A stretch of 39,595 nt of DNA, from assembly GCF_026627425.1 (NCBI RefSeq), contig NZ_JAPNLH010000025.1, positions 1-39,595 of the forward strand, in the 5' to 3' direction. This DNA comes from Arthrobacter endolithicus. GTDB lineage: Bacteria > Actinomycetota > Actinomycetes > Actinomycetales > Micrococcaceae. The notes beneath the pieces were generated by a model that was given only the letters and a program-made list of their open reading frames with translations, did not search any database and was not told the origin of the DNA. Each line of letters begins with the position of its first letter. Positions within the stretch are counted from its first letter, which is position 1. A program made the translations under genes and the position numbers. Positions 505 to 38,502 of the stretch are shown piece after piece.

Positions 505-1560
505 CTACAAGCTATTTTTCGGAGCCATCAGAAAGTCCTGGCGGACGCCGAGGGCTTCGTCGGTGCGGCGGATGGATTCAGCGGCGTCGGTGACGGTTCC
601 GGCGAGGGCGCGGACGGCGTCGATGTTTTCCGGAATGACGACGGCTTGGTTGTCTACTGTATAGGTGTAGAAGAGTTCGCTGCCCTGGACGGTGAGGATG
701 TCTTCCCAGAGGGCGACTTCGTACATGTCCCCGCGGGGCCGGCCGAGATCTTTCATGAGCTCGATGGTGCTGTTCAGGGCCACAATTCCGTCGGCCCGGC
801 GGACCAGGGCGATCCGCGGCATGGCCCGCAGCGCGTCGAGTATTTCCTCCCTACCGGCGGGGCGGGTGAGCTCAACGGTCCAGTAATGCATGTGGTTCTG
901 GGTGTGCGAGCCTTTGACCGCCGTGGTTATCACGTCAAGGTCGGGGTCCACCGATTTCGCGTCCGGTCCTTGGTGGCTGGGAATGCTGGCCTCCGGGACC
1001 ATGGTGTTCATGATCCCGGAATGGTCCGATTCCCATGGGTCAGTCGCCCGGCGGATGAGCACGCCGCGGGCTTTGCTGAGCAGCCCGGCGTCCTTCAGCG
1101 CGGTCAGGGTGCGCACGGTCGCGGTGGTGTTGCAGGAAACCACCCGGGTGGCCTCCCGGCCCAGGGCCGTGTCGTAGTTGGCGTGGGCGACGAAGGAATG
1201 GCCGGTGAGTTCATGTTTTTCCCCGCCCTGGAAGATGGCCTTCACCCCGTGTTCGCGGTAGTGGTCCAGGTTGCCGGCGCCGATTTTCGCCGGGGTGCAG
1301 TCCACGATGACGTCCACCGCGTCCAGGAGCTGATGTAGCCCGCCGGCGACAGGTATGCCCCCGGCAGCCAGGTCCGTTGCGCTTTCCGTGGTGGAGGCGT
1401 AGACGGGGATTGCCAGTGCGACGGCGGTTTTGATCCGGTAGTCCGAGATCACGTCGCTGATTCCGATAAGTTCCATGTCTGGCTGTGCTTTTATCGCATG
1501 GGCGACGCGTTTGCCGATGACTCCGTACCCGTTCACGCCGACTCGTATTTTCTCGGACAT
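505..1560 (-). CDS. gap: type II (archaeal-like) glyceraldehyde-3-phosphate dehydrogenase
   Basis: The 351-residue protein matches the type II GAPDH family, which oxidises glyceraldehyde 3-phosphate to 1,3-bisphosphoglycerate with NAD(P) in the cytosol and is only distantly related to the usual bacterial GapA. The N-terminal dinucleotide-binding segment reads VGVNGYGVIGKRVA, and SCNTT near residue 140 carries the catalytic cysteine. Length fits the family (about 335-350). I chose the ATG at 1560 over the one at 1575 because AAAGGA sits 6-7 nt upstream of it and MSEKIRVGVNGYG is a typical start. The gene lies 72 bp downstream of the damaged ubiB-like gene and may be the last gene of the xfp operon. 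A housekeeping gapA would be expected elsewhere in the genome, which is an inference. Confidence 0.92.
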   Translation of the reverse strand: MSEKIRVGVNGYGVIGKRVAHAIKAQPDMELIGISDVISDYRIKTAVALAIPVYASTTESATDLAAGGIPVAGGLHQLLDAVDVIVDCTPAKIGAGNLDHYREHGVKAIFQGGEKHELTGHSFVAHANYDTALGREATRVVSCNTTATVRTLTALKDAGLLSKARGVLIRRATDPWESDHSGIMNTMVPEASIPSHQGPDAKSVDPDLDVITTAVKGSHTQNHMHYWTVELTRPAGREEILDALRAMPRIALVRRADGIVALNSTIELMKDLGRPRGDMYEVALWEDILTVQGSELFYTYTVDNQAVVIPENIDAVRALAGTVTDAAESIRRTDEALGVRQDFLMAPKNSL

Positions 1561-1632
1561 GGTTATTCCTTTCATTGGAGTGGTTGTGCAGGGATTGTCG
1601 GGCCATGGCGGCTGCGCCCTGATGGGTGCTGG

Positions 1633-2205
1633 TTAGGGTCGGCGTTTTCGTTGCTGGCGCGCGGTCCAGGCCAGGTCGGCCCGCAGCGAGCCAGCTGTTA
1701 CCAGGCATGCTCCCAGCAGCGGTGCCTGCCAGGATTTTTGTCGGGCCGGGCCTGCTGCCACAAGGTCCCCGATGCCCCGGACGAAGGCGTTGGCCAGGAT
1801 GGCGACGACGAGGTGCTGGCCGGGCTGCAGGTTGAACGATGCAAAGAACTCCCCGGCGCGGTGTCCGGGTTCGTGTTCGATGAGTCCGGCGGTGAGGGGT
1901 CCGGGAACCGGCGGCGCGGAATCCTGCAGTTTGGTCAGTTCCTCCTGGTAGGGTTCGGCCAGCAGCAGGTCCTGAGGGGTGGCGAGGAGCTGACCGAGCT
2001 TCACGAAGGTCGGGCCGAGCTGTTCCAGTGCCAGGCGCAGGTGTTCGGGGTTCGAGTAGGGTTCCTCCCGGCGTTCATTGTCCAGGAACCCGTGCTGGAA
2101 GGGCAACCACCGCTGTAGGCCCATGGCGCCGGCCAGGAATCCGAGGCCGTACCGAACCAGGGTTTCGGCGATCTGCGAGTAGCGTTCGGCATGGATACCT
2201 GTCAC
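1633..2205 (-). pseudogene. UbiB/ABC1-family atypical kinase gene with internal in-frame deletion
   Basis: The first part has the ABC1/UbiB N-terminal signature (RYSQIAETLVRYGLGFL, then ALEQLGPTFVKLGQLLATP and YQEELTKLQDSAPPVP). It reaches EFFASFNLQP and, at about position 1821, passes in frame into GQHLVVAILANAFVRGIGDL and a hydrophobic end (APLLGACLVTAGSL) that resembles the membrane-anchored C-terminus of the same family. The central kinase core is missing: AxAxIGxVH loop, catalytic Asp and metal-binding residues. The 190-residue product compares with about 450-560 in the family. I prefer the GTG start at 2205, 4 bp after the upstream stop and preceded by a GGGGGAG ribosome site. No kinase activity is expected. 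Confidence 0.82.
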
Positions 2206-2209
2206 CTCT

Positions 2210-5200
2210 TCACTCCCCCACCGCAGAAGCGCTATGGGCATCCGGCGGTTCGGGCGGGGTCCGGGCCGATTCCGCGGGCAGGGGAACGTCCCAGTTCTGG
2301 CCGGGGGCGAGGGTCTTCTCGATGCCCTCGACGCAGACCCGGACGGGGGCGGCCGAACAGGGATGCAGCCGCAGGCTCACCCGGTCCTCGGTGAGAGTGA
2401 TGCTGATCGGTTGTCCCCGGTAGCTGAGCCGAAATGAGACCGCGGTCAGTTCGGCGGGCAGGACCGGATGCAGCCAGAGAGCGTCCCGGCGGGTTTCCAC
2501 CCCGGCATAGCAGCGCATCACCATGTCGGCGGTCCCGGCCATGGCTCCCACGTGGACTCCTTCGTGGGTGGTCCCGCCCTGCGTATCGGCCAGATCGGCT
2601 TCCAGCGCCTGTTCGAACAGTGACCAGGACCGGGCCCGGTCGGTACGGGCGAGTACCCAGCTATGGATCAGCCTGCTCAGGGTCGAACCGTGGCTAGTGC
2701 GGGCCAGGTAGTAGCGGACAGTGGCCGGGATGAGTTCCGCGGCCAGGTCGTAACCGAGGCGGCTGAAAACTTCCCGCAGTTCTTCGGCGGAAAACAGGTA
2801 GAACAGCATCAGGACATCGGCCTGTTTGGAGAGTTTGTATCTGTTGGTGGTGTCACCTTCGGCCTGCAGAATCAGATCCAGCCGGCCGATGTTGGCGTAC
2901 CGGGCCCGGTAGGCATCCCAGTCGAATTCCTCCAGTGCTTCGTATCCCTCGAACTGGCTGATCACTCCGTCGTGGAACGGGATGCGCAGCCGCCTGCTGA
3001 TCCTCCCCCAGTGTGCCGGTTCCCCGGGCTGAAGGTGCAGCCTGTTCCACAGCGGCCCGCAGTCGTGGCCGGCCAGCAGGGCCACCGTTTCGCCGGCCCG
3101 GGCCAGGACCCAGGCGGTGAGCACGTTCGTGTAGGCGTTGTTGCGTAATCCCTGGCCCGGTGCGTCGGGATAACCGTCGTGGTACTCGTCCGGGCCCATC
3201 ACCCCGCTGATGTTGTAGCGGTCCTGGGTCGGATCATGGACGGCCAGGGAGGTGAAGAGCCGGGCCACCTCGACGAGGATCTCGGCCCCGTAGTCGGTGA
3301 GGAAGCGCAGGTCGGCGGTGGCCTGGTAGTACTGCCACACGCTGTAGGCCACGGCCAGGCCGACGTGCCGCTGCCGGCGGGAGTTATCGCCCATCCACTC
3401 CCCGTTGCGGACGTTGAACAGTTCATCCGGGGTTTCCTCCCGGCCCTCGCTGCCGGACTGCCAGGGGAACATGGCCCCGTCCAGGCCTGCGGCGCGGGCT
3501 GCGGTGCGGGCTGCGTCCAGGCGCCGGTACCGGTAGAGCAGGAACGCGCGGGTCAGTTCCGGCCGGTGCAGGGTCAGCACCGGGTAGACGAAAAGTTCAT
3601 CCCAGAAGATATGCCCGCGGTAACCCTCTCCGTGCAGGCCGCGGGCGGGCAGGCCCGCGTCCATGTCCGTGTCCGCGGCGGCAACGCTCTGTAATACGTG
3701 GAAGAGATGCAGGTTCAGGGCCAGCGACTGCCGCGAACCGGTCTGCATCTCGATCCCGAACCGCTCCCACAATTCAACCCAAGCCGTGGTGTGGGCGTGC
3801 AGCAGGTCTTCGAATCCGGGGGCGTGGCGGATCCTGTTCCCGGCGTCCAAGGCAGCCGTGGAGAGCGCCCGGTCCCGGGAAGATGCTACGGCGGCGGTCT
3901 TTTCCACCGTCACGGCCCTGCCGCGCTGCAGGCTGATCGTGATCTCATGACCGGCACGGGCCTTCGCGGTCATCAGCCGCCGGCCGGTCACCGCGCCACC
4001 GGGACTGACGCGGGTGCGCAGGGCGGTCGCGATCCTGATCCGGGACTGGTTGGTGACCGCCTCATACAGCACCGTGTCGGCGTCGAGTTCGACGGAGCCG
4101 ACAGGGGCCAAGTGATCGTGGGCCAGGGACCGGTCCGCTGCCACATTGGTATTGGCCACGGCTCCGTTCACGGCCGAACACACGATCACCTCACCGGACC
4201 AGTCCTCGGCCTCGAGCGTGACGTCCAGTGCGGCCAGGTGCGGTTCGGTCAGGGACTGGAACGCCCTGGAGATGATTCGGGTGGTCCGGCCTGCGGCGTC
4301 GCGGTACCGGTTGGTGCGGGTGAGCACCCCGGTACGCAGGTCCAGGTCCTGATGGTGGCTGAGCATCTGCTCTGATCCCGGGCGCAGTAGGGAGCCCTCT
4401 GCGGAACGGACGGTCAAGAATGACCAGTCCGGGGCGTTGACCAGATGCTCGGTCTCCAGGCTGTGGCCGTGACGGTCGGTGCTGAGCCGGTTGTAAATTC
4501 CGGCCAGATAGGTCCCCGGGTAATGGACGGCGCCGGCGGTGCTGCCGGGCACTGCGCCGCGGGTGGCCCAGTACCCGTTCCCGAGCGTGCACAACGCCTC
4601 CCGGGTCCCCTCCCGGGCAGGGTCGAACCGGTCATAGACCAGGTTCCAGCCCCCCGGGGCGACGCTCGCCGCACCCCCGCACCAGGAGCCCCCGTCCATC
4701 TCCCGGGCGCCAAGACGGGGCCAATTGAGACGACGGGTTCCCTTGAGATTAAGTTCGGCCACATCCCCCACCACCACGTGGGCTCCGGCGGCAAGCAGCC
4801 GGTCCGGGCTCCCGGTACGGTCCACCCCCACGACCAGTGCGAAACCCCCAGCTGCGCCGGCGGCGACCCCGGCGGGTGCGTCCTCTATGACAACGGCATC
4901 GGCGGGATCCACGTGGAGCCGGTGTGCGGCCTCCCAGAACATGGCCGGATCCGGTTTGCCCGGCAGTGAAAGCGCCAGCGCGTCGGTTCCGTCGACCCGG
5001 ACGGTGAACAGGTCCGTGATGCCGGCGGCGTCAAGGACCGCCGCACTGTTGCGGCTGGAAGTCACCAGCGCAACGGGCACCTGCTCCGCGGCCAGGTCCC
5101 GCAGCAGTTCCATCGCATCGGGAAAGACCGTCACCCCGCCGTCGCCCAGCGCGGCAGTGAAGAAATCCTGCTTGCGGGTGGCCAACCCGTTGATCGTGAG

Positions 5201-5515
5201 CTGCTCGGGCGCATCCCCAGCACTGCCCTCAGGCAGGGTAATCCCCCGGGAGTCCAGGAACGTTCTCACCCCGTCCTCCCGGGTCCGTCCGTCAACGAAG
5301 GCCCGGTAGTCCTGCTCCGCGTCAAACGATACTTGCGTGTCATCGATCCGGGGCAGGGCCTGATCGAAAAGTGCCTTCCACGCCGCCGCATGCACCTCGG
5401 CGGTATCGGTGACTACCCCGTCCATGTCAAAGATTACCGCGGCATAGCCCGAGGGCGTCCCGTAGTTTCCTTGCCCGGGTGCTGGCGGCAGGTGGTGCAG
5501 ATTGTCTAGGTGCAT
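2210..5515 (-). CDS. fusion of HAD beta-phosphoglucomutase-like domain and GH65 disaccharide phosphorylase
   Basis: This 1101-residue fusion has a HAD phosphatase/mutase domain at about 25-255: DMDGV at 30-34, LVTSSRN near 151, GKPDP near 187 and VIEDAPAGV near 209. From about 290 to 1080 it is a glycoside hydrolase family 65 phosphorylase with the general-acid Glu at about 777 in VMGPDEYHD. GH65 enzymes phosphorolyse trehalose, maltose, kojibiose or nigerose to glucose plus beta-glucose 1-phosphate, which a beta-phosphoglucomutase turns into glucose 6-phosphate. The fusion could therefore do both steps. The exact disaccharide cannot be told by eye; trehalose or maltose is likely. The ATG at 5515 overlaps the xfp stop as TGATG and has GGAGGA 6 nt upstream, so the two genes are probably translationally coupled. 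Confidence 0.9.
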   Translation of the reverse strand: MHLDNLHHLPPAPGQGNYGTPSGYAAVIFDMDGVVTDTAEVHAAAWKALFDQALPRIDDTQVSFDAEQDYRAFVDGRTREDGVRTFLDSRGITLPEGSAGDAPEQLTINGLATRKQDFFTAALGDGGVTVFPDAMELLRDLAAEQVPVALVTSSRNSAAVLDAAGITDLFTVRVDGTDALALSLPGKPDPAMFWEAAHRLHVDPADAVVIEDAPAGVAAGAAGGFALVVGVDRTGSPDRLLAAGAHVVVGDVAELNLKGTRRLNWPRLGAREMDGGSWCGGAASVAPGGWNLVYDRFDPAREGTREALCTLGNGYWATRGAVPGSTAGAVHYPGTYLAGIYNRLSTDRHGHSLETEHLVNAPDWSFLTVRSAEGSLLRPGSEQMLSHHQDLDLRTGVLTRTNRYRDAAGRTTRIISRAFQSLTEPHLAALDVTLEAEDWSGEVIVCSAVNGAVANTNVAADRSLAHDHLAPVGSVELDADTVLYEAVTNQSRIRIATALRTRVSPGGAVTGRRLMTAKARAGHEITISLQRGRAVTVEKTAAVASSRDRALSTAALDAGNRIRHAPGFEDLLHAHTTAWVELWERFGIEMQTGSRQSLALNLHLFHVLQSVAAADTDMDAGLPARGLHGEGYRGHIFWDELFVYPVLTLHRPELTRAFLLYRYRRLDAARTAARAAGLDGAMFPWQSGSEGREETPDELFNVRNGEWMGDNSRRQRHVGLAVAYSVWQYYQATADLRFLTDYGAEILVEVARLFTSLAVHDPTQDRYNISGVMGPDEYHDGYPDAPGQGLRNNAYTNVLTAWVLARAGETVALLAGHDCGPLWNRLHLQPGEPAHWGRISRRLRIPFHDGVISQFEGYEALEEFDWDAYRARYANIGRLDLILQAEGDTTNRYKLSKQADVLMLFYLFSAEELREVFSRLGYDLAAELIPATVRYYLARTSHGSTLSRLIHSWVLARTDRARSWSLFEQALEADLADTQGGTTHEGVHVGAMAGTADMVMRCYAGVETRRDALWLHPVLPAELTAVSFRLSYRGQPISITLTEDRVSLRLHPCSAAPVRVCVEGIEKTLAPGQNWDVPLPAESARTPPEPPDAHSASAVGE

Positions 5516-7959
5516 CAAGAGTCCTCCACTGCCGGTGCAGCAGTCTGTGCATGCGGCCAGCTCCAGCCGCTGATGGCCGGATCGTCCTCTCCGTGGGCCC
5601 GGGTCCAGGCGCGGGCGCGGACACGTTCATCAACCATCCGCTGACGCAGCCCGGCAGCCCTCTCGGCCAGGCCTGGGACCCTGTCAATGACGTCCATCAC
5701 CAGGTGGAACCGGTCCAGGCTATTGAGCATGACAATATCGAAAGGGGTGGTAGTGGTGCCCTCCTCGCGGAAACCGCGCACGTGGAAATTTTGGTGGTTA
5801 TTCCTGCTGTAAGTCAGGCGATGTATCAGCGCCGGGTAGCCATGATAAGCGAAGATCACCGGCCGAGTGGCAGTAAAGACAGCGTCGAACTCGGCCTCCG
5901 GCAGCCCATGCGGGTGCTCAGTCTCCGGCTGCAGCCGCATCAGGTCCACCACGTTGACAACCCGGACAGTCAACTCAGGCAGGTGTCGGCGCAGCAGGTC
6001 CACGGCCGCGAGGGTTTCAAGGGTCGGTACATCCCCGGCGCAGGCCATCACCACATCGGGCAGCACCCCGGCAGTGGCCGTCCCGGTGCAAGGAGCAGCG
6101 GTTTCGTTGCCCGCCCATTCCCAGATTCCCAGCCCGCGCTGGCAGTGCAGGGCCGCCTCGTCCATCGTGAGGTAGGACAGGGCCGGCTGCTTGCCGGCGA
6201 CGATTAGGTTGATGTAGTTGCGGCTGCGCAGGCAGTGATCCGCCACCGAGAGTAGCGTGTTGGTATCCGGCGGCAGGTAGACCCGGACAATTTCGGCTTT
6301 CTTATTGATCAGGTGGTCAATGAATCCCGGGTCCTGATGGGAGAAGCCGTTGTGGTCCTGGCGCCAAACATGGGAGGTGAGCAGATAGTTCAGCGAGGCG
6401 ATCGGCCGTCGCCACGGAATTTCGCCGGCGACCTTGAGCCACTTGGCGTGCTGGTTCACCATCGAGTCGACAATATGGATGAAGGCCTCGTAGCAGGAGA
6501 ACATGCCGTGCCGGCCGGTGAGTAGATAGCCTTCCAGCCACCCCTGACACAGGTGCTCCGAGAGGACCTCCATCACCCGCCCCGACTGGGCCAGGCTCTC
6601 GTCGGTGGGTAGCATTTCGCCTTCCCAGACACGGTTGGTGGCTTCGAAGACGGCGCCGAGCCGGTTGCTGACCGTCTCATCCGGTCCCATCAGCCGGAAC
6701 GTGGACGGGTTGTTGGCGATGACGTCGCGCAGGTAGGTGCCCAGCACCCGTGTTGCCTCGCTGATGGTTGTCCCGGGCGCCTCAACGGTGACGGCGTAGT
6801 GGCGAAAGTCCGGCAGGCGCAACGGCTTCAGCACCGCTCCTCCGTTAGTCACCGGGTTCGCGCTCATCCTGCGGGTGCCTTCCGGTGCAAGGTCAGCCAG
6901 CTCGGACAGCAGCGCCCCGTCGGCGTCGAAGAGTTCCTCCGGATGGTAGGAGGCCAGCCATTCCTGCAGCTGGCGCAGGTGTTCCGGGTTTTCCCGGAGG
7001 CCGGCCAGCGGCACCTGGTGGGAGCGCCAGGTACCTTCGGTCGGCAGTCCGTCGACCTCCTTCGGCCCGGTCCAGCCCTTGGGCGTGCGCAGCACAATCA
7101 ACGGCCAGCGCGGGCGTTCGCTCACGGCCCCGGCCCGGGCCTCGTGCTGAATACGGCCGATCTCGTCGACGACGTCGTCCAGGACCGCCGCGAACTGCTG
7201 GTGGACCCGGTCAGGGTCGTCACCGCTGACCAGGTAGGGTCGGTGTCCATACCCCTTCAGCAGGGCCATCAGTTCCTCATCGGGGATGCGCGCCAGGACG
7301 GTGGGGTTGGCGATCTTGTAACCGTTCAGGTGCAGGATCGGCAGTACCGCACCGTCGTGGACGGGGTCCAGGAACTTATTTGAGTGCCAGCTGGCGGCCA
7401 GCGGTCCGGTCTCGGCCTCCCCGTCGCCGATGACGCAGGCCACCAGAAGGTCCGGGTTATCGAAGGCCGCCCCATAGGCGTGCATCAGCGAATACCCCAG
7501 CTCCCCGCCCTCATGGATGGAGCCCGGGGTCTCCGGGGCGACGTGGCTAGGGATACCACCCGGGAAGGAGAACTGCCGGAACAGGCGCCGCAGACCGTCC
7601 TCGTCCCGGCCGATGTCGGGGTAGACCTCGCTGTAGGTCCCATCCAGGTAGGCATTGGCGACCAGACCGGGGCCGCCGTGGCCGGGTCCGGTCACGTATA
7701 TCGCGTTCAGGGCCCGGGCCTTAATCACCCGGTTCAGGTGCACGTAAATCAGGTTCAGCCCCGGCGTTGTGCCCCAGTGGCCCAGCAGCCGCGGCTTGAT
7801 GTGCTCCAGCGTCAACGGCTCCCGCAACAAAGGGTTGTCCAGCAGGTAGATCTGGCCAACGGAGAGATAGTTCGCCGCCCGCCACCAGGCGTTAATGTGT
7901 TCGAGTTGGATGGGGCTAAGGACCGGGTCCCGAAGCGTTAGCACCTGATAGTCATTCAT
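5515..7959 (-). CDS. xfp: xylulose-5-phosphate/fructose-6-phosphate phosphoketolase
   Basis: The 814-residue thiamine diphosphate enzyme has family-typical length and motifs. These are GPGHGGPG near residue 90, a ThDP/Mg site [19 protein letters not shown] followed by LNGYKIANP, the [10 protein letters not shown] segment, and [16 protein letters not shown]. It cleaves xylulose 5-phosphate (and usually fructose 6-phosphate) with phosphate to acetyl phosphate plus glyceraldehyde 3-phosphate or erythrose 4-phosphate. The glyceraldehyde 3-phosphate is a substrate of the GAPDH encoded downstream, and glucose 6-phosphate from the GH65 fusion can feed the route. The ATG has AAAGGAT upstream. The start lies 54 bp after the metal ATPase gene, so co-transcription is plausible. 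No acetate kinase or phosphotransacetylase gene is in the window. Confidence 0.95.
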
Positions 7960-8013
7960 GAGTTGTGCATCCTTTGATCGACGGGGAGAAAGTGCGTCAT
8001 GGCCTCGGACGTT

Positions 8014-10509
8014 TTACCGGGCTCCACTCGGCGCTGGGGTCGGGGCCGGTTCGGATTTCGTCGTGGTTCCGGCCGGCTCAACCGGTGCGGGCAGGTGCAG
8101 CCGCTTCAACAGCAGTGCGTTGACCGCGACGATGACGCTGGAACCAGACATTGAAATGGCGGCGATTTCCGGGCTGAGCCGAATGCCCAGGGAAGCGAAG
8201 AAAATGCCGGCGGCGATGGGCAGTGCGATGACGTTGTAGCCGATGGCCCAGCCGAGGTTTTGCCGCATCTTGCGCACCGTCCCCTTGCCGATGCGCAACG
8301 CCACCGGAACATCCAGCGGGTCCGAACGCATCAGGACCACATCCGCTGTATCAATAGCTACATCTGTCCCTGCACCGATTGCCATGCCGAGGTCTGCCTG
8401 GGCAAGTGCCGGGGCGTCATTGACGCCGTCCCCTACCATGGCGACCCGTTTGCCGGCGGTCTGCAGCTCTACGATTTTCGCTGTTTTGTCCCCTGGCAGT
8501 ACTTCGGCGATGACGGTGTCGATTTTCAACAAGGAGGCGATGCGCTGGGCCGTTGCCTCATTGTCTCCGGTGAGCATGATGACCTCGATGCCGGCCTCGT
8601 GCATCGCGGCGACCGCTGCGGCAGCCGTCCCGCGGACCGCGTCTGCCAAGGCAATCATCCCGGCTGCTTTGCCGTCGACGGCCACCAGGACGGCGGTGCG
8701 GCCGGTAGATGCAAGCTTCTCCCGCCGCTCGGCCACAGGGGCGATGTCAACTCCTTGGGCAGTCATGAGTTTGCGGTTGCCCACAAATACCTGGTGTCCG
8801 TGAACCATCGCTCCTGCGCCGTGCCCGGGTACGTTGCGGAAGTCTGTGGCATCCGGTGCGGACACGCCTCTGCCCTCGGCATAGTTGACGACGGCGGCCG
8901 CGAGGGGGTGCTCTGATTCGCGTTCCACGGCAGCCACGAGGGCGAGTAGTTCATCCTCGTCAATGCCGACGGCAATGAAGTCCGTGACCTCCGGCTTTCC
9001 TTGGGTCAGGGTGCCGGTTTTATCCATCACGACGGCATCTATACGTGCCGCGGTTTCCAGTGCGGTGGCATTCTTGAACAGGATCCCGCGCTTGGCGCCC
9101 AGGCCGGTGCCGACCATGATGGCCGTGGGCGTGGCTAGCCCTAGCGCGTCGGGGCAGGTGATGACCACGACCGTAATGGCGAAGAGCAGCGCCGTCTGCA
9201 GGCTTGCCCCGGTCAGCAACCACACCACGAAGGTGGCACTGCCTCCTATGAGTGCGACTAGGACAAGCCAGAAAGCGGCCCTGTCCGCCAGGCGTTGGCC
9301 GGGAGCCTTGGAGTTCTGGGCTTCCTGGACGAGCGCGACGATCTGGGCCAGGGCCGTGTCTGCACCGACCTTCGTGGCCCGGACCCGTAGTGTTCCGGTC
9401 GTGTTCACGGTGGCCCCGACGACTTTGGAGCCCTTGGTCTTGGCAACCGGCAGGCTTTCCCCGGTGACCATTGACTCATCGATGTCAGACTCGCCGTCTT
9501 CGACGGTTCCATCCGTGGGGATCTTGGACCCCGGACGCACCAACAGCAGGTCCCCGGGAACGACCTCGGCGGTGGGGACTTCTACCGGTTCCCCGTCACG
9601 GATCACCAGCGCCTTGGCCGGTGCCAGTTCCAGCAGTGTCCGGATGGCGTCGTTCGCCCCGCCCCGGGCGCGCATTTCAAACCAGTGTCCCAGCAGCACG
9701 AAGCTGGCCAGCACCGTGGACGCCTCGTAAAACACGTCGCCCCCGCCGGTCAAAGTCACGACCAGGCTGTAGACCCAGCCCGCTCCCACGCCCACAGAGA
9801 CCAGGACCATCATGTCCAATGTCCGCGCCTTCAGTGCCCGGTAGGCGCCGTCGAAGAAAATCCAGCCCGCATAGAAGACGACCGGCAGGGACAGAGCAAG
9901 TGCCAAGACATCGTCCCGTAGGCCGAAGGGCGCCGGCACCGTGAAGCCGAGGACATTTCGTCCGATGGGTGAGAAAAGGGTAATCGGTACCGACAGTGTG
10001 GCCGCCACGAGGAACCGGTTCCGCATGTCTTTGACCATCGCGGCCATCGCCTTGCCTCCGTGGCCACCACCGTGGCCCATGACGTCCTGCGGGTTTTTGG
10101 TTACGGGTCCGCCGTGGTCTTTGTGGTCCTGGGCCTGTGGTTCTTTAGCCGTCGTTGTCCGATGCCCGGCCCGGTCGGCAACTGAGACGGTTTCGTGGTC
10201 GTCGGCGGCGCGGCCGTGGTGCTTTTGGGAGGATGTGGTGTCATCCATCATTGGATCGCAGATGTGGTCAGGGACGGATAGGCCAGCGCAATGGTAGCCG
10301 CACTTACGGATCCACTGGGCCAGATCGGCCACCGATGTCTGCTGCGGATCATAAGTGACGTTGGCTGTCTGCGCTACAGGATTTGCGGCCACGGCGACAA
10401 CACCCGGGAGGCGCCCCAGTACCGACTCTATGATGGATTTCGAGGAAGCCCAGTGGACGCCTGCCACTTCCATAACCGCTGTTTCAGACTTGGGATTCAT
10501 GCAGATCAC
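8014..10509 (-). CDS. P1B-type metal-transporting ATPase (copper group) with CPD motif and degenerate HMA domain
   Basis: The 831-residue protein has all catalytic P-type motifs: MVTGES, phosphorylated Asp496 in [25 protein letters not shown] and [14 protein letters not shown]. The late membrane helices carry [12 protein letters not shown] and [15 protein letters not shown], which match the Cu(I) P1B-1 signatures. Two things are odd. The intramembrane motif is CPD (residues 452-454), where CPC is usual. The N-terminal heavy-metal-associated fold reads GVHWASSK where GMTCxxC is expected, so it lacks the paired cysteines. A His/Asp-rich linker (HDHx[13 protein letters not shown]) follows and may take over metal binding. 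The translation starts at GTG 10509 or ATG 10500; GGAG lies upstream of both. Copper efflux is likely, but the altered motif could change specificity. Confidence 0.9.
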
Positions 10510-11859: not shown

Positions 11860-13968
11860 TCATGGCTGGACCTGTTGGGGGCCGTCCACGGTCGTCGTGG
11901 CGCCGGGATTCCCGACATGGAGCATGCCGGCTAGCAGGTCGGTCACCAGAGCTGTGACGGCTCCGAGGGTCTTGGGGCCGGAATTCTTGGGCGCTCCAAG
12001 GGGGGACCTGAAGGGCCTTTCCGGTGGTTCCCCTCCGGCCGCCTGACGTAGCGGGATCGAGGTCAGTGCGCTGACTTCGGCTAGGTTGGCCGGTCCGGTG
12101 AACGCGGGCCGTGCCGACCATGCCAGCACCGGGGTGAGCAGGAAACCGCTGTCGGCCAGCGCAACGGCTGGCAGCGTGCCCAAGATGTGCACGCTGGCCG
12201 GGTCCAAGCCTGTTTCCTCGTAGGCCTCACGGAGCGCTGTACTGGCCGGTCCGTCGTCGCTGGTTTCGGTTGCGCCGCCGGGGAAGACCAGCTGCCCGGG
12301 GTAGTGGATCAGGTCGGGTGCGCGTTCGGTGAGCAGCACCGCCGGTCCCTCCGGGCTGTCGGTGAGCAGCACAAGCGCCGCAGCGGACCGTAGTGTGATC
12401 TGTACCGGCTGCCGGTCCAGATGGAAGCGGGCAGGCCCAGTCAGCCGTGCCAACCGGGTGGCCCATGCTGGGAGTGCCGATGACTCGTTGCCGAAAGCTT
12501 GAGGGACGGGAGCTCCGGGCTCCAGCCACTGCAGCTGACCGGTTCGTATCCGCAGCAGCGCCACACCGGGAGCGCTGTCTGCTGGTTGCACCAGGCGTGT
12601 CTGCTGACCGAAACCGGGATGGCCGAACAGTGCCCTGGCCGGACGACGGCTCGTCAGCTCCGTGGTGGCGGAGAAGTTGGCGGGGTTGTTGGCCACCGCG
12701 ACGAAGGCCTGCCCGGCTCCTACAAGGTTCGCGACCGGGCCGCCGAAGGCGACCAGGGTTTCGCTCATTGCCGGCACCAGCACCATGTTGACACCGGCCT
12801 CAGTCAAAGCGTGCACGGCGTGCGGGTTGAGCAGGTCCCGGCAGATCGCAATCACCAGATGCCACCCGTCGGCGCTGACGTGGACGCGTAGCTGCGGCCA
12901 GCCCTGCGGTTGGATGTCTTCATTGAGCGGCATGTCGGCCGGGGAATGTTTGTCCTGAGTCAGCGGCGCCGGGCAGCCGCGAAGATAGGCGATAGCGGTG
13001 TTCCGGCGTCGAGGCGGCCCGTCGCGGCCGTCCGGGTCGGTGCCGGGATGCGCGTCGTCGTGGTGGTAGCTGCCAGCCACCAGCAGCCGCGGCCCATCAG
13101 CGCGGCAGGTCCAGTCCTGTAGCCGCGCGGCCAGCGACTCGGTGACGCACAATTCGGGCAGTACGACGATGCTCGCGCCGGCTGTGACGGCGGCACTGGT
13201 CAGCCGGTCAATTTCATCGTGTTGCCGCTGCTCGTCGGCTGGACGGACGGGAAAAGTCCGGCCCAGGGCATCGACGGGGAATTCGAACTCGGCCAGTGTC
13301 CGGTTGGGATGGCAGGTTGCTATGACCGTGTCCGGGCCGACGAGTCCGGTAAGAGCGTCGGCGAGGCTATAGTCGAAGATGACCTGAAATTGTGTGGTCC
13401 ACTCCCCCGCCAGCCGGATGTGGCGGGTCTCATCCAGCCGGTTGGCCAACCGCCACGACGGTGAGGTAGCCGGCAGCGTCGTTACCAGAGGCAGGTCCGG
13501 ACTATCCAGAGGGATCGGATCCCCCACGCCCGGCTGGTATGGGCTGCGCCGTCGGAAGGACTCCGCGAAGCTGTGGCCGTAGCGTTCATCGAGCAGTTCG
13601 GCCAATGCGTGCGCAACAACCACGGCCGGCAGATCCTCCGCCGCGGTCAGCGCCGCAGCCAGTGCCCCTCGCACCTGCAGATCCAGGACGGGCACCGTCG
13701 AGGCGGCGGCCAGCACCGGCAGCACGTCGGCCACGATCAGCTCTACCTGCGTGCGGCAGCCGGGATCGTTCACCCGTTCCCACAGCACCGGGTGCTCGTC
13801 GCGGCACAGTAGCAAAAGGTGGGTGAGGGTGATCAAAGGTTCGGCCTCGGCCACAATCGCGGCTTGGATCGCCGCGACCCGCTGCGGCAGCGGCAACGGG
13901 CGGGCCACGCACGGAGCGCATGCCGTCATCGTGTGCTTCTGGCCGTCGCGGTGGGGAGCCGGGCTCAC
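11860..13968 (-). CDS. three-part protein: unknown N-terminus, nitrilase-like hydrolase, CoA-pyrophosphatase-like Nudix domain
   Basis: The 702-residue protein combines two enzyme families. Residues about 1-190 are Ala/Leu-rich, probably helical, and unrecognised. Residues about 210-480 look like the carbon-nitrogen hydrolase fold, with the expected Glu-Lys-Cys triad: Glu272 in VVLPELCV, Lys340 in TQDKHSP and Cys376 in AICRDLLNP. Residues about 525-650 form a Nudix domain with HYPGQLVFPGG (555-565) and REAYEETGL (580-588). These are close to the CoA diphosphatase signature, although the usual spacing to the first Nudix Glu is altered. The protein could hydrolyse an amide and cleave a nucleoside diphosphate-linked metabolite, possibly repairing a damaged cofactor; that is inference. 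The GTG at 13968 has GAGG 7 nt upstream. No signal peptide is seen. Confidence 0.8.
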   Translation of the reverse strand: MSPAPHRDGQKHTMTACAPCVARPLPLPQRVAAIQAAIVAEAEPLITLTHLLLLCRDEHPVLWERVNDPGCRTQVELIVADVLPVLAAASTVPVLDLQVRGALAAALTAAEDLPAVVVAHALAELLDERYGHSFAESFRRRSPYQPGVGDPIPLDSPDLPLVTTLPATSPSWRLANRLDETRHIRLAGEWTTQFQVIFDYSLADALTGLVGPDTVIATCHPNRTLAEFEFPVDALGRTFPVRPADEQRQHDEIDRLTSAAVTAGASIVVLPELCVTESLAARLQDWTCRADGPRLLVAGSYHHDDAHPGTDPDGRDGPPRRRNTAIAYLRGCPAPLTQDKHSPADMPLNEDIQPQGWPQLRVHVSADGWHLVIAICRDLLNPHAVHALTEAGVNMVLVPAMSETLVAFGGPVANLVGAGQAFVAVANNPANFSATTELTSRRPARALFGHPGFGQQTRLVQPADSAPGVALLRIRTGQLQWLEPGAPVPQAFGNESSALPAWATRLARLTGPARFHLDRQPVQITLRSAAALVLLTDSPEGPAVLLTERAPDLIHYPGQLVFPGGATETSDDGPASTALREAYEETGLDPASVHILGTLPAVALADSGFLLTPVLAWSARPAFTGPANLAEVSALTSIPLRQAAGGEPPERPFRSPLGAPKNSGPKTLGAVTALVTDLLAGMLHVGNPGATTTVDGPQQVQP

Positions 13969-14107: not shown

Positions 14108-14593
14108 TCATGGCAGCTGTTGAAGCAGGCGGCGTGCTTCCCCGGCCATCTGCCGGGCGACGATGACGTCGTAGCTGGAGGCGAGCACCCCGCTCGTGGA
14201 GGTGAAATCGCGTTTTCCCCGCTGCAGGGCATAGTTCACGATCCCAAAGAGCATGAACAAGGCTGCACCCATCAGGACGAAGGTCACGATGGAAACAAAA
14301 CCGCCGCTGGAGGAAAAGAACGAGAGCAGCACGCCGACGAAAAGGCCGAACCACATCCCGGTCAGAGTCCCGGACAAAGCCACGCGCGGATAGCTCAGCC
14401 TCCCCGTGACGCGTTCTACCTTCTTCAGACGGTTGCCCACAATGGACACCAATCGAACCTGGAACTGGTGGTCAGCTAGATAATCGACCGCTTTTTGTGC
14501 GTCCAGATACGAAGTGTAAGTGCCAATGGTCTCCTTACTCGGTATGCTGCGGGAATCATCCGGCGGCTGTGGTGTTCCCAAAAAATTCGGCAT
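14108..14593 (-). CDS. general stress protein 17M-like membrane protein
   Basis: The 161-residue protein starts with a soluble segment matching the general-stress 17M fold (IGTYTSYLDAQKAVDYLADH, then VRLVSIVGNRLKKVERVTGR). Two hydrophobic helices follow (about 74-93, TGMWFGLFVGVLLSFFSS, and about 97-120, VSIVTFVLMGAALFMLFGIV), and a cytoplasmic tail ends in MAGEARRLLQQL. This layout is common in actinobacteria and its biochemical role is unknown. It starts at ATG 14593 and lies about 140 bp upstream of the nitrilase-Nudix gene on the same strand. Conserved sequence and length suggest an intact gene. Confidence 0.85.
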   Translation of the reverse strand: MPNFLGTPQPPDDSRSIPSKETIGTYTSYLDAQKAVDYLADHQFQVRLVSIVGNRLKKVERVTGRLSYPRVALSGTLTGMWFGLFVGVLLSFFSSSGGFVSIVTFVLMGAALFMLFGIVNYALQRGKRDFTSTSGVLASSYDVIVARQMAGEARRLLQQLP

Positions 14594-14925: not shown

Positions 14926-15836
14926 CTACCGGCCGGTGAGGGATCCAACCGTTCCGGCGATGATTACACCGATGCTGAGGAGAGCGAGGCTGACGATAAT
15001 CATCCAGGTCTTGTCGATTCGATCAGCCTTCACCGTTGTCGTTTCCTGATCGGCGGGACTGTTTTCGGATGCCGTGCTGAGGCCCGAAACGGCATTGCGG
15101 CGCTCGTTCGCGAGCCGGTTACCGTTAGCGCTGAGAGCGACACCGGCAAGGGCCAAACCCGCAGCGAGCGGGACTGGTGTTCCATCGGGGTGGATTGTCA
15201 TCATTCCGTGTTTAAGGCCTGCTGAGACAAGCCACCAGTTCAACGGGTAGGTTACGGCGAACCCGAGTGTGAGGGATAAGGAGAAGATGAACCAGAACTG
15301 GGGATGGTTGGGGTTGCCAGGGTCCCGGCTGCTTGCCGCCACGGGACGCTCAAGGCGATCATTCCCGCCATCAGCCCATTCATCGACACGAACTCGGGCA
15401 GGAACGTCATTCGAAGGCTGAGGGCGTAGTTGCCTCCAGCCATGTCCCGCATGAAGAGTGCTTGGAATATTGTCCACCCGAACAGGAAACCAAGTCCGTA
15501 TTCTCCCAGGAGGTTCACCCACATGGGCAGCCGAAGTGGTGTGAGGGCCGCGGCGGCGACCAAGATACCGATGCCGTCTCCGGCGACGCAGTGCATGGTG
15601 GATCCGACAACCTGACGCCACCGTGCGCGAGCATAGTCGGCGTGAAGACCGGGCAATGGTTCTCGGCATGAGAGGACATAAAGCACCAGCCCAATGGGGC
15701 CAGTGAAAAGGACGACGACTACGAAACCCCATTTCAGTACTGGAGATTCGGGTGTATGGACGATGTCTATAGCAACGAAACCCACCGAGGCTGCCACTTC
15801 TGCAAACCAGAGCAACATAATCCCATCAAGCACCAT
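14926..15836 (-). pseudogene. DUF4396 membrane protein with a frameshift
   Basis: The first frame, from ATG 15836 (AAGGAG 5 nt upstream), encodes MVLDGIMLLWFAEVAASVGF, EYGLGFLFGWTIFQALFMRD, MAGGNYALSLRMTFLPEF and NGLMAGMIALSVP. The second frame continues with SRDPGNPNHPQFWF, SLTLGFAVTYPLNWWLVSAG and LKHGMMT, then a linker and a final helix (MIIVSLALLSIGVIIAGTVG). Together they form one DUF4396-type protein of about 300 residues, a family often near copper genes. The two frames meet at about 15340-15346, where one base appears to be missing in the run CCCGTGG. It may be a true inactivating mutation or an error in the sequence. Without a shift the product would lose its C-terminal helices. Confidence 0.8.
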
Positions 15837-16111
15837 GCTCACTCCTTCGTCTTCTCGATGAGGCCATGCGAGTGGCCCTAGCCTCCGCAGCCTGCCGATC
15901 CCAATGCGGTCGATAGTGTCCTGATCGGGATGGGGGGAGAGATACGGGATGGTCATCACCGCCGACGATGGGGGCTTTCCGCTGGTCGTCGCTGCCGAAG
16001 GCAAGGACGCCGAAGGTAAGGACGCGGCCGCGTATGCCTTTTTCCGCACCGGCGATGGCCGCCTTCGGCGCTCTGCTGCAGTGTTTGCCCGTTGTTCTGT
16101 GCTGGAGTCGG

Positions 16112-23964: not shown

Positions 23965-26094
23965 GTGGACAACCACAACAACCCCACGGGCCACCGATCC
24001 ATTGATACTGCCCCGGAACAGGGGCTGTCCGGGGAGAACTCCATCCCGAATCACGCGATGATGGGGCACGCTGGCATGGACCATGATGACCACGCCGGGC
24101 ACAGCGGAGGACAACATGCCGGGCACAGCACGGCCATGTTCAAGAACCGTTTCTGGCTGACCCTGGTCCTGTCCATCCCTGTCGTGTTCTTCAGCCCCAT
24201 GTTCGGGCACCTTCTGGGCTACTCCGTGCCCCAGTTCCCCGGTTCGGCGTGGATCCCGCCCGTGCTGGGCACTGTGATCTTCTTCTACGGCGGACAGCCA
24301 TTCCTCAAGGGTGGATGGCAGGAAATCAAGTCCCGCCAACCGGCCATGATGTTGCTGATCTCTATGGCCATTTCGGTGGCGTTCATTGCGTCGTGGGTGA
24401 CGAGTCTGGGTTTTGGCGGCTTCGACCTGGACTTCTGGTGGGAGCTGGCCCTGCTGGTGGCCATCATGCTGCTGGGACATTGGATCGAAATGCGCGCACT
24501 CGGCTCGGCCAGAGGCGCTCTTGATGCCCTGGCAGCCCTGTTGCCCGATGAGGCTGAACGGGTGATCGACGGCGGAACCGAAACCATCAGCACTGCCGAG
24601 CTGAACCCCGGCGATATTGTTTTAGTCCGACCCGGCGCCAGGCTTCCCGCTGACGGTGAAGTCACCGACGGTTCCGCCGAAGTCGACGAGTCCATGATCA
24701 CCGGCGAGTCCAAGACCGTCTCCCGCACGGTCGGGGACTCCGTAGTGGCAGGTACCGTCGCGACCGATAATTCCCTGCGCGTGAAAGTCACGGCCGTCGG
24801 TGACGACACGGCACTGGCCGGGATTCAGCGACTGGTGTCCGAAGCCCAATCCTCCACGTCCCGCGCACAGGCCCTGGCCGACCGGGCCGCGGCGTTCCTG
24901 TTCTACTTTGCTGCTGGCGCGGGCGTCATCACCTTCATCGTATGGTCGCTGCTGGGCAGCATTCCCGATGCCGTGACGCGGACCGTGACAGTGCTCGTCA
25001 TTGCCTGCCCCCACGCCCTGGGTCTGGCCATTCCGCTGGTCATTGCCATCTCCACTGAACGGGCTGCCCGGGCCGGTGTGTTGATCAAGGACCGGATGGC
25101 GCTCGAGCGGATGCGCACCATCGACGTCGTCCTCTTCGACAAGACCGGAACACTAACCAAGGGAGAACCGGCCGTCACGCATATCGTCGCCAGTGATGGC
25201 ATCACAAAGGATGGGCTGCTGGCATTGGCCGCGGCCGTGGAATCCGACAGTGAACACCCCGTGGCCCGCGCCATCATTACAGCCGCGGAAAAGGCCGGCG
25301 CGCCGGTCTTGGCAGCCACTGGGTTTCAATCGATGACCGGTCGTGGGGTGGAGGCCAGCATTGACGGTTCCACCGTGGCCGTTGGCGGCCCGGCCCTATT
25401 GAAGGAACTCGGCCTGGCCGAACCGGAGCGAGTTGGCACCGCAACAACACAATGGATGGACCGTGGAGCATCAGTCCTGCACGTCATCAAGGACGGTGCC
25501 GTGATCGGCGCCGTCGCCTTGGAAGATGAAATCCGGGAAGAATCCCGGCAGGCAGTCCATGCCCTGCAGGCACGCGGTATTAAAGTTGCCATGATCACCG
25601 GTGACGCCCACCAAGTCGCCGCCACGGTGGCAGCCGAGCTGGGCATCGACGAAGTCTTTGCCGAAGTCCTCCCCCAGGACAAGGACCAGAAAGTGGCCGA
25701 GCTCCAGGGCCGCGGGCTGAAAGTTGCCATGGTCGGTGACGGCGTCAATGATGCCCCAGCCCTGGCCCGGGCAGAAGTCGGCATCGCCATCGGTGCCGGA
25801 ACGGACGTCGCCATGGAATCAGCCGGGGTGGTCCTGGCCGGCAACGACCCCCGCGCGGTGCTCTCCACCGTGGAACTCTCCCAAGCCAGCTATCGCAAAA
25901 TGTGGCAAAACCTGATTTGGGCCACCGGCTACAACATCATCTCCGTCCCACTGGCTGCCGGAGTGCTCGCCTTCGCCGGGGTCGTTCTCTCACCCGCCGC
26001 CGGGGCCGTGCTCATGTCACTGTCCACCATTGTTGTGGCACTGAACGCCCAACTACTGCGCAGACTCAAACTCGACCCGGCCGACGTCAGCTAG
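23965..26094 (+). CDS. copB: CopB-type (CPH) P1B-3 copper-transporting ATPase
   Basis: The 709-residue protein begins with a His/Met-rich leader (NHAMMGHAGMDHDDHAGHSG) in place of an HMA domain, as in CopB. The catalytic motifs are MITGES, CPH at 348-350 (VIACPHALGLAIPL), phosphorylated Asp392 in DKTGTLTKG, SDSEHPVARAI, MITGDA and [14 protein letters not shown]. The last helices carry GYNIISVPLAAG and MSLSTIVVALNAQLL, the signatures of the P1B-3 group. These enzymes export copper from the cytosol. The GTG start at 23965 has TAGGAG directly upstream and lies 41 bp after the copZ-like gene, so both use the CsoR-like promoter. Confidence 0.93.
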   Translation: MDNHNNPTGHRSIDTAPEQGLSGENSIPNHAMMGHAGMDHDDHAGHSGGQHAGHSTAMFKNRFWLTLVLSIPVVFFSPMFGHLLGYSVPQFPGSAWIPPVLGTVIFFYGGQPFLKGGWQEIKSRQPAMMLLISMAISVAFIASWVTSLGFGGFDLDFWWELALLVAIMLLGHWIEMRALGSARGALDALAALLPDEAERVIDGGTETISTAELNPGDIVLVRPGARLPADGEVTDGSAEVDESMITGESKTVSRTVGDSVVAGTVATDNSLRVKVTAVGDDTALAGIQRLVSEAQSSTSRAQALADRAAAFLFYFAAGAGVITFIVWSLLGSIPDAVTRTVTVLVIACPHALGLAIPLVIAISTERAARAGVLIKDRMALERMRTIDVVLFDKTGTLTKGEPAVTHIVASDGITKDGLLALAAAVESDSEHPVARAIITAAEKAGAPVLAATGFQSMTGRGVEASIDGSTVAVGGPALLKELGLAEPERVGTATTQWMDRGASVLHVIKDGAVIGAVALEDEIREESRQAVHALQARGIKVAMITGDAHQVAATVAAELGIDEVFAEVLPQDKDQKVAELQGRGLKVAMVGDGVNDAPALARAEVGIAIGAGTDVAMESAGVVLAGNDPRAVLSTVELSQASYRKMWQNLIWATGYNIISVPLAAGVLAFAGVVLSPAAGAVLMSLSTIVVALNAQLLRRLKLDPADVS

Positions 26095-37722: not shown

Positions 37723-38502
37723 TTAGCTCAGTTGTGTCACTCCCTTCCCGGCCAGGGCTTGGGTCAGCCTGACGGAGTCGCCGCTGGTCTGGCAGACATG
37801 GGCATGATGCAGCAGCCGGTCCACCGTCGCTGTCGCCAGCGTTTTGGGCATGAGTTCGTCAAAACCGGCCGGGTGCAGGTTCGAGGAGATCGCGATGGAG
37901 CGTTTCTCATAGGCGGCATCTACGACCCGGTATAGCCCCTCGGCGGCGTCGGTTCCCACAGGCAAAAGGCCGATGTCATCAACCACCACCAAATCGGCGC
38001 GCAGCACCCGGGTGACGGCGCGGGGGACGCTGTCATCGGTGCGGTGGGCGCGGATGAGCTGGCCGAGGTCCTCGAGGCGGAACCAGGCCACGCGCAGGCC
38101 TTCCTCCACGGCTTGCTGGCCCAGGGCTTCAAGGAAGAAGGTTTTCCCGGTGCCGGAGGGCCCGCAGACGACGAGGTTTTCCCCGCGCCGGATCCATTCC
38201 AGGGTCCGCAGCGCCTGCTGGGTAGGGGCCGGGATCGAGGAAGCATCCGGGTCCCAGGCATCGAAGGTTTTCCCGGTCGGGAACCCGGCAGCCTTGCGCC
38301 TGGTGGCGAGCATCGAGGCTGCCCGGCCACGGATTTCCTCCGCACAGAGGGCTTTGATGACTTCGACTGGTTCCCAGCGCTGGGCGCGGGCGGTAGCGAC
38401 GAGTTCCGGTGCCAGGGCGCGGGCGTGGGGCATTTTCAAGGACCGCATCATCGCTTCAAGATCCGCCGGCAGTGCCGCAGCGGTGGTGTTCAACGGGTTC
38501 AC
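37723..38502 (-). CDS. istB: IS21-family helper ATPase IstB
   Basis: The 259-residue AAA+ protein has Walker A in GPSGTGKTFFLEALG and Walker B in DLVVVDDIGLLP. It also has the IstB N-terminal domain (LPADLEAMMRSLKMPHAR) and the sensor-like ending SSNLHPAGFDELMP. It assists IstA in target choice and transposition and looks intact. The start is GTG 38502, overlapping the istA stop (GTGA), so it is coupled to istA translation. Without a complete istA in the same element it can act only with a transposase supplied from another copy. Confidence 0.92.
   Translation of the reverse strand: MNPLNTTAAALPADLEAMMRSLKMPHARALAPELVATARAQRWEPVEVIKALCAEEIRGRAASMLATRRKAAGFPTGKTFDAWDPDASSIPAPTQQALRTLEWIRRGENLVVCGPSGTGKTFFLEALGQQAVEEGLRVAWFRLEDLGQLIRAHRTDDSVPRAVTRVLRADLVVVDDIGLLPVGTDAAEGLYRVVDAAYEKRSIAISSNLHPAGFDELMPKTLATATVDRLLHHAHVCQTSGDSVRLTQALAGKGVTQLS

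What the first reader, a model, noticed from the sequence alone, without database searches (positions are those of the whole stretch)
11860..13968. Nitrilase-like hydrolase fused to a CoA-pyrophosphatase-like Nudix domain and an unknown N-terminus
One 702-residue frame holds a full Glu272-Lys340-Cys376 triad and a Nudix segment with the HYPGQLVFPGG / REAYEETGL signature. Both families act in metabolite repair and nucleotide-linked cofactor turnover, so the fusion predicts two steps on one substrate or its product. The roughly 190-residue N-terminal part is unassigned. Nitrilase domains also occur in some anti-phage proteins, so a defence role should be kept in mind.
Basis: partly seen in the sequence, partly recalled or inferred. 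Interest (0 to 1): 0.72.

Follow-up and report, generated by a model that had tools for sequence, protein, structure and literature searches.

The report
Fused amidase–Nudix enzyme in copper islands
A single bacterial protein joins a nitrilase-type amidase, a Nudix enzyme that resembles coenzyme A-splitting enzymes, and a new helical front part; it is a conserved but sporadic actinobacterial family, often beside copper-resistance and sugar-metabolism genes, which suggests it may recycle a damaged cofactor under metal stress.

Summary
Window 11860-13968 (-) encodes one 702-aa protein: a helical N-terminal part without recognised relatives, a nitrilase-superfamily domain (Glu272, Lys340, Glu350, Cys376, 18 of 18 aligned members) and a Nudix domain nearest to CoA diphosphatases (Arg580, Glu581, Glu584, Glu585, 18 of 18). 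The fusion is a family trait: 19 of 21 loci from one genome scan and 9 of 11 opened plasmid loci carry both domains in one frame; three of the four others are frame breaks with both domains' DNA still adjacent, one is a fragment. All three parts are under purifying selection. The family is sporadic (2 of 297 genomes of the order; 1 of 394 of the class), and every member found is actinobacterial. Copper/heavy-metal genes and spare central-carbon enzymes recur beside it, none at the same cut-off in 20 chromosomal control stretches. A defence role has little support. Best guess, inferred: turnover or repair of a CoA-like cofactor under copper or thiol stress. The substrate is unknown; the Nudix substrate motif departs from that of chromosomal relatives. 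New combination of known folds plus an undescribed N-terminal part.

The parts
11860..13968 (-). whole gene: N-terminal domain + nitrilase-superfamily domain + Nudix domain, 702 aa
13549..13911 (-). residues 20-140: helical N-terminal domain (helices from 27 to 141 in the model); Cys17 and Cys20 (CxxC) at its edge, invariant His50, Cys55, His59
   Evidence: no convincing relative in Pfam or PDB
13399..13548 (-). residues 141-190: connecting segment, the most conserved part of the family (mean pairwise identity 0.80), outside known domains and of low model confidence
12514..13398 (-). residues 191-485: nitrilase-superfamily domain, Glu272, Lys340, Glu350, Cys376
12034..12408 (-). residues 521-645: Nudix domain, CoA-diphosphatase-like, Arg580 Glu581 Glu584 Glu585
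14108..14593 (-). neighbour: YflT general-stress domain protein (not recurrent beside relatives at the 40% cut-off)
8014..10509 (-). neighbour: heavy-metal (copper-type) P-type ATPase with HMA domain
5515..7959 (-). neighbour: phosphoketolase (XFP)
2210..5518 (-). neighbour: beta-phosphoglucomutase-like HAD fused to GH65
505..1575 (-). neighbour: GAPDH; its 73% identical relative in L039 is annotated type II
23965..26094 (+). neighbour: second P-type ATPase

Best explanation
A bifunctional cofactor-turnover enzyme, often carried on actinobacterial metal-resistance islands. The Nudix domain hydrolyses the pyrophosphate of a CoA-like dinucleotide cofactor, probably a damaged or oxidised form that builds up when copper attacks thiols; the nitrilase domain then hydrolyses an amide of the released half (for CoA: the amide that holds cysteamine in phosphopantetheine), so that the undamaged part can re-enter synthesis. 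The N-terminal helical domain with CxxC and His-x4-Cys-x3-His may bind metal or sense redox state. Shown here: the fusion, its conserved catalytic residues, selection on every part, its sporadic spread and its genomic company. Inferred: substrate, order of steps, role in metal stress, role of the N-terminus.
For: Nudix part is nearest to CoA diphosphatases by sequence and fold (NUDT7 first). Nitrilase part keeps its catalytic set in 18 of 18 rows and finds amidases and ureidopropionases by fold. Mammalian CoA breakdown uses Nudix enzymes, phosphatases and pantetheinases (review PMC6008590, passages seen); that pantetheinases belong to the nitrilase superfamily is recalled. One fused Nudix group (support 92/91, below the strict mark). 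At least one metal query gene in 10 of 10 plasmid loci and 15 of 21 genome loci, at least one carbon query gene in 9 of 10 and 14 of 21; none of 25 query genes at the same cut-off in 20 control stretches. Copper inhibits GAPDH (PMC6350627, abstract and section titles seen) and the pentose phosphate pathway (PMC10249872, abstract seen) in S. aureus, which fits spare carbon enzymes beside copper pumps.
Against: The Nudix substrate motif departs from that of chromosomal relatives: Tyr in place of His in 18 of 18 against His in 29 of 29; Gly-Gln in 6 of 18 against 29 of 29. The CoA-pyrophosphatase cut-off is not met. No pantetheinase is named among the 50 fold matches shown of 692 or the 15 sequence matches. 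A phosphatase would be needed unless phosphopantetheine is cut directly. Six of 21 genome loci lack every metal query gene and 7 of 21 every carbon one in the stretch held (L057 is only 4,157 bases long). No CoA or NAD biosynthesis gene was seen among the annotated plasmid neighbours or the ORFs scanned, which is not every gene of every locus.
Confidence: 0.35

Rival explanations
1. The enzyme works on a pyridine nucleotide: Nudix splits NAD(H) or ADP-ribose and the nitrilase domain deamidates the nicotinamide-bearing product, feeding NAD recycling under stress.
For: NudC and ADP-ribose pyrophosphatase structures are among the lower fold matches; an amidase bound to nicotinamide (5ny7) and glutamine-dependent NAD synthetases are among the nitrilase fold matches; the changed motif leaves room for another dinucleotide.
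Against: Closest Nudix relatives by sequence and fold are CoA diphosphatases; no NAD-metabolism gene noticed among the neighbours looked at.
Confidence: 0.2
2. Two hydrolases were fused for co-expression or assembly; they act on different metabolites, both useful in metal stress.
For: The segment between nitrilase and Nudix domains is the least conserved part (mean pairwise identity 0.25), as for a tether. Animal NitFhit also joins a nitrilase-like protein to another enzyme (PMC9913352, search listing with the start of its abstract); that its two halves have no established joint substrate is recalled.
Against: No intact member without both domains was found: 19 of 21 genome loci and 9 of 11 opened plasmid loci have both in one frame, the rest are frame breaks or a fragment; single fused group.
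Confidence: 0.25
3. A defence or toxin-like effector: the nitrilase domain destroys an essential metabolite on infection, with the Nudix domain as partner.
For: PADLOC matches at E up to 1: RT-associated nitrilase in 15 of 18 members, CARF nitrilase in 12, UG5 nitrilase in 8 (best E 2.7e-5); plasmid carriage. In DRT1 a nitrilase domain is the effector, substrate unknown (PMC13275509, passages seen).
Against: In the window copy the matches cover the nitrilase part only; no reverse transcriptase or CARF domain; no phage or confirmed viral-contig homologue; neighbours are metal and carbon genes.
Confidence: 0.06
4. The Nudix part is regulatory, not catalytic (as in NrtR-type sensors, recalled), reading a dinucleotide signal that controls the amidase.
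For: Changed substrate motif.
Against: Arg580, Glu581, Glu584 and Glu585 are kept in 18 of 18, which a pure sensor would not need.
Confidence: 0.1

Closest known systems
NudL / NUDT7 / D. radiodurans CoA diphosphatases
   Same: Nudix fold, catalytic box, LLTxR...FPGG lead-in; best sequence and fold matches
   Different: fused to a nitrilase domain; His to Tyr and frequent loss of Gly-Gln in the substrate stretch; separate group in the tree against chromosomal relatives; curated cut-off not met
Nitrilase-superfamily amidases (beta-ureidopropionase, Nesterenkonia amidase, N-carbamoylputrescine amidohydrolase)
   Same: fold and Glu-Lys-Glu-Cys catalytic set (the set as the family's mark is recalled)
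   Different: 12-17% identity in the matches shown; extra N-terminal domain and a 50-residue conserved segment; Nudix tail
Vanin / pantetheinase
   Same: acts after a Nudix enzyme in mammalian CoA breakdown (PMC6008590, passages); nitrilase-superfamily amidase (recalled)
   Different: no pantetheinase is named in the sequence or fold lists seen
NitFhit (worm and fly)
   Same: a nitrilase-like protein fused to another enzyme (PMC9913352, search listing)
   Different: the partner there is a HIT-fold enzyme, not Nudix (recalled)
DRT1, UG5 and CARF nitrilase defence proteins
   Same: weak profile matches of the nitrilase part
   Different: no reverse transcriptase or CARF domain; different neighbourhood

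Membership tests
Nudix superfamily | Nudix box with REUxEExG catalytic residues (box recalled) | tested here: met
   Arg580, Glu581, Glu584, Glu585, Gly565, Asp571 in 18 of 18 rows of A3; Pfam NUDIX above cut-off
NudL-type CoA diphosphatase | score over the curated NCBIfam model cut-off | tested here: not met
   82 bits against 134
NudL-type CoA diphosphatase | CoA lead-in motif as in chromosomal relatives (motif recalled; comparison computed) | tested here: not met
   LLTxR and FPGG largely kept, but His to Tyr in 18 of 18 and GQ in 6 of 18, against His and GQ in 29 of 29 chromosomal relatives; the Arg of the motif varies in both sets (3 of 18 and 11 of 29)
NudL-type CoA diphosphatase | fold nearest to CoA diphosphatases | tested here: met
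   ranks 1-8 of the Foldseek list are NUDT7, Arabidopsis NUDT11 and the D. radiodurans enzyme
NudL-type CoA diphosphatase | hydrolysis of CoA or its derivatives | not testable with these tools
   needs enzyme assay
Nitrilase superfamily | catalytic Glu-Lys-Cys with second Glu (recalled) | tested here: met
   18 of 18 rows of A3, 11 of 11 of A1
Nitrilase superfamily | Pfam CN_hydrolase over curated cut-off | tested here: inconclusive
   window copy 16.4 bits against 23.2; 18 of 18 members match at E up to 1, best 9.2e-8
Nitrilase superfamily | nitrilase fold | tested here: met
   the 50 Foldseek matches shown (of 692) bear nitrilase-superfamily names as I know them, best E 5.1e-8, target-normalised TM 0.29-0.57, rmsd about 6-11, in a model of moderate confidence (pLDDT 63)
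DRT / CARF nitrilase defence systems | reverse transcriptase or CARF domain in the same protein | tested here: not met
   no such domain in the window copy; PADLOC matches limited to its nitrilase part
Pantetheinase | release of cysteamine from pantetheine | not testable with these tools
   needs enzyme assay

The most novel reading that the evidence does not exclude
A single-polypeptide thiol-cofactor repair machine: metal- or redox-switched by its Cys/His N-terminus, it strips the copper- or oxygen-damaged cysteamine end from CoA (Nudix cut, then amidase cut) and returns phosphopantothenate for rebuilding, as one module of a mobile island that pairs copper export with copper-tolerant carbon metabolism.
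Probability: 0.13. Interest if true: 0.8.

Novelty: new variant of a known kind. Interest (0 to 1): 0.55.

Why it matters
If the two active sites share a substrate, this protein is a ready handle for finding how bacteria recycle damaged CoA or NAD. Its company also points to a mobile gene set that joins copper export with spare versions of carbon enzymes that copper poisons, which makes a concrete, testable idea about metal tolerance in soil actinobacteria.

Tried and rejected
Defence role: PADLOC, phage and viral-contig searches gave weak or no support. DevR-type box (GGGNCNNNNGNCCC, recalled): 1 in the window against 2.98 expected; among the upstream stretches looked at, present only before the two Streptomyces copies, whose loci hold 10 (shuffle mean 3.7, maximum 11; L056) and 1 (mean 3.9; L041): above the mean but inside the shuffle range for one, below it for the other. 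N-terminal domain: a profile search of PDB sequences gave 8 matches at E 0.0046-8.7, nearly all designed proteins by their names; the structure search of the model with this part is headed by nitrilase matches and did not address it; a phylum-wide genome sample gave only the window itself (1 of 396). Nearest non-fused nitrilase relative: in plasmids down to E 10, only four further records at E 4-9. The order-wide search listed two more weak matches (G321, E 6.7e-6; G226, E 1.7e-4), covering 145 and 86 of 515 residues; I did not count them as members. Literature: 10 searches. Those nearest to the question (49: at least 3 of nitrilase, Nudix, fusion protein, pantetheinase, 5 papers; 50: five terms on phosphoketolase, stress protein, copper, plasmid, Rhodococcus, 0 papers; 95: at least 4 of five island terms, 26 papers, 10 listed; 96: nitrilase, Nudix, fused, copper, plasmid, 0 papers) showed no paper on this protein or gene set, judged by titles and abstract starts; subscription journals are not held. 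Amycolatopsis tucumanensis (L055) as a copper-resistant strain is recalled, with only search listings seen.

Counting notes: A3 holds the window and 17 of the 21 genome loci; left out were L048 and L054 (frame breaks), L065 (gene identical to L064) and L063 (near copy of L062, not identical). Genes also repeat across sets: L034 equals L060 and plasmid L040 equals L064. Near-identical plasmids count as several records. Of 16 plasmid records I opened 11: 9 intact, L044 broken, L047 a fragment. The genome scan used two peptide patterns, so 21 is a lower bound. The tally covers 10 plasmid loci (L047 left out) and 21 genome loci; 13 of the 25 query genes came from these same plasmid loci, which therefore match themselves. 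The control is chromosomal and from the window's order, so it does not control for accessory or plasmid DNA in general; two matches below the cut-off (28% identity) were seen there. My note gives Gly-Gln as 8 of 18 and says the L055 frame runs on from a transporter; searches show 6 of 18, and a transporter gene in another frame, and I use those.

Full report
The frame at 11860-13968 (-) is open for 702 codons. The GTG start has GAGGA upstream (sequence); the ATG at residue 14, just before the conserved CxxC, cannot be excluded. Residues 20-140 model as a bundle of helices (block pLDDT about 58-93). Residues 191-485 are a nitrilase-superfamily domain and residues 521-645 a Nudix domain. Both models are of moderate confidence overall (pLDDT 62 and 63).

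Homologues: the first 515 residues were found in 16 plasmid records, 15 of them over at least 80% of the query (12 Rhodococcus, 2 Mycolicibacterium, 1 Streptomyces, 1 Mycobacterium), and in no phage record. A two-pattern scan of genome contigs gave 21 loci, all actinobacterial by title: Arthrobacter, Amycolatopsis, Streptomyces, Knoellia, Blastococcus, Nocardioides, mycobacteria and others. Nineteen of the 21 hold nitrilase and Nudix parts in one frame. L048 and L054 have frame breaks with both parts' DNA adjacent. In L055 the first residues are missing: the DNA there reads as a transporter gene in another frame. L067 lacks the C-terminal tail. Nine of 11 opened plasmid loci are intact; L044 is broken into pieces in different frames and L047 is a fragment of the nitrilase part. 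The family is sporadic: 2 members in 297 genomes of the order, 1 in 394 of the class, and for the N-terminal domain alone 1 in 396 of the phylum, the window's own genome counted each time; these are samples drawn from larger groups.

Catalytic residues: Glu272, Lys340, Glu350, Cys376 and Arg580, Glu581, Glu584, Glu585 are invariant in 18 of 18 rows of A3 and 11 of 11 of A1. His50, Cys55 and His59 are invariant too, and Cys17 and Cys20 stand in 16 and 17 of 18 rows of A3 and 10 of 11 of A1. The A1 row without them has a late annotated start; the codons for both lie just upstream. This Cys/His set in a metal island suggests a metal or redox site; that is inference. Segment 141-190 is the most conserved (mean pairwise identity 0.80, against 0.66 nitrilase, 0.59 Nudix, 0.49 N-terminus) and has no assigned role. 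dN/dS in 7 pairs lies between about 0.08 and 0.37 for each of the three parts, so all are maintained.

Nudix part: in a tree of 18 fused and 29 chromosomal NudL-like domains the fused ones lie on one side of a branch (support 92/91, below the strict mark; 89% of 200 bootstrap trees), which fits one fusion event. The lead-in motif differs: Tyr for His in 18 of 18, and Gly-Gln in 6 of 18 against 29 of 29. A CoA-like substrate is the best single guess, but a shift of substrate is likely enough that I do not claim membership in the CoA-diphosphatase family.

Surroundings: upstream of the gene lies a YflT stress gene; downstream, after a small ORF with a weak DUF6153 match, come a copper-type P-type ATPase, phosphoketolase, a beta-PGM/GH65 fusion and GAPDH. 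Genes of these kinds recur beside the homologues in differing orders and orientations: phosphoketolase in 6 of 10 plasmid and 11 of 21 genome loci, beta-PGM/GH65 in 7 and 11, the P-type ATPase in 9 and 11, AarF kinase in 6 and 11, universal stress protein in 7 and 8, GAPDH in 1 and 9, 6-phosphogluconate dehydrogenase in 3 and 0, YflT in 0 and 1 (at 40% identity over 60 residues). Any metal query gene: 10 of 10 and 15 of 21; any carbon query gene: 9 of 10 and 14 of 21. Twenty 19.9-kb stretches around chromosomal NudL genes held none of the 25 query genes at that cut-off. Limits: the loci are related, 13 queries came from them, and the control is not plasmid DNA. Phosphoketolase as such is common (183 of 297 genomes of the order), and this genome holds three. 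The WAY2 genome paper places copA, copZ and csoR in an island of the plasmid that carries this gene; 'nudix' does not occur in its main text, and I did not check that the island is the same stretch (PMC7276702, passages seen). M. chlorophenolicum, the source of L059 and L064, was noted for many copper genes (PMC4524478, passages seen).

Mechanism: in S. aureus copper inhibits GAPDH (PMC6350627, abstract and section titles) and phosphoribosyl pyrophosphate synthesis (PMC10249872, abstract). A gene set with copper export, an extra GAPDH, phosphoketolase and in some loci 6-phosphogluconate dehydrogenase therefore reads as a copper-tolerant carbon module; this is inference. Within it, an enzyme that splits a CoA-like cofactor and cuts an amide of the product could recycle thiol cofactors damaged by copper. 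Mammalian CoA breakdown runs through Nudix enzymes, phosphatases and pantetheinases (PMC6008590, passages). Rivals are NAD turnover, fusion for co-expression, and a regulatory Nudix part; a defence effector is least likely.

Verdict: a real, conserved three-part enzyme family, not described in the papers that my searches showed; domain folds known, combination and N-terminus new, function open but readily testable.

Noticed in passing
window 505-10509 and homologous loci: A recurring gene set joins copper export with spare carbon enzymes (phosphoketolase, GAPDH, beta-PGM/GH65, in some loci 6-phosphogluconate dehydrogenase) on actinobacterial plasmids and islands; it may be a copper-tolerant metabolic module and could be the larger finding.
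   Followed up: partly
window 1822-2193 (-): Remnant similar to the first quarter of an AarF/UbiB-like kinase (66% identity over residues 3-125 of 545); longer copies sit beside the fusion gene in many relatives.
   Followed up: partly
window 14926-16049 (-): DUF4396 matches fall in two overlapping frames (profile 107-141 and 1-98), which looks like a broken or shifted gene.
   Followed up: no
window 15928-16059 (+): Short stretch similar to a multicopper oxidase (54.5% identity, residues 332-370 of the query, E 3.7e-7), possibly a remnant.
   Followed up: no
window 30901-32355 (-) and 37723-39449 (-): IS66 transposase and IS21-type helper ATPase genes, with a weak Mu-transposase C-terminal match beside the latter, suggest a mobile region.
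   Followed up: no
window 13399-13548 (-), residues 141-190: Most conserved stretch of the family lies outside any known domain and is not modelled with confidence.
   Followed up: partly
L044, L047, L048, L054: Broken or fragment copies of the fusion gene on R. aetherivorans and M. paragordonae plasmids and in two Arthrobacter records; described only.
   Followed up: partly
L041 9668, L056 9803: Palindromes resembling a DevR-type box lie 87 bases before the annotated or a candidate start in both Streptomyces copies; not in the other upstream stretches looked at.
   Followed up: partly
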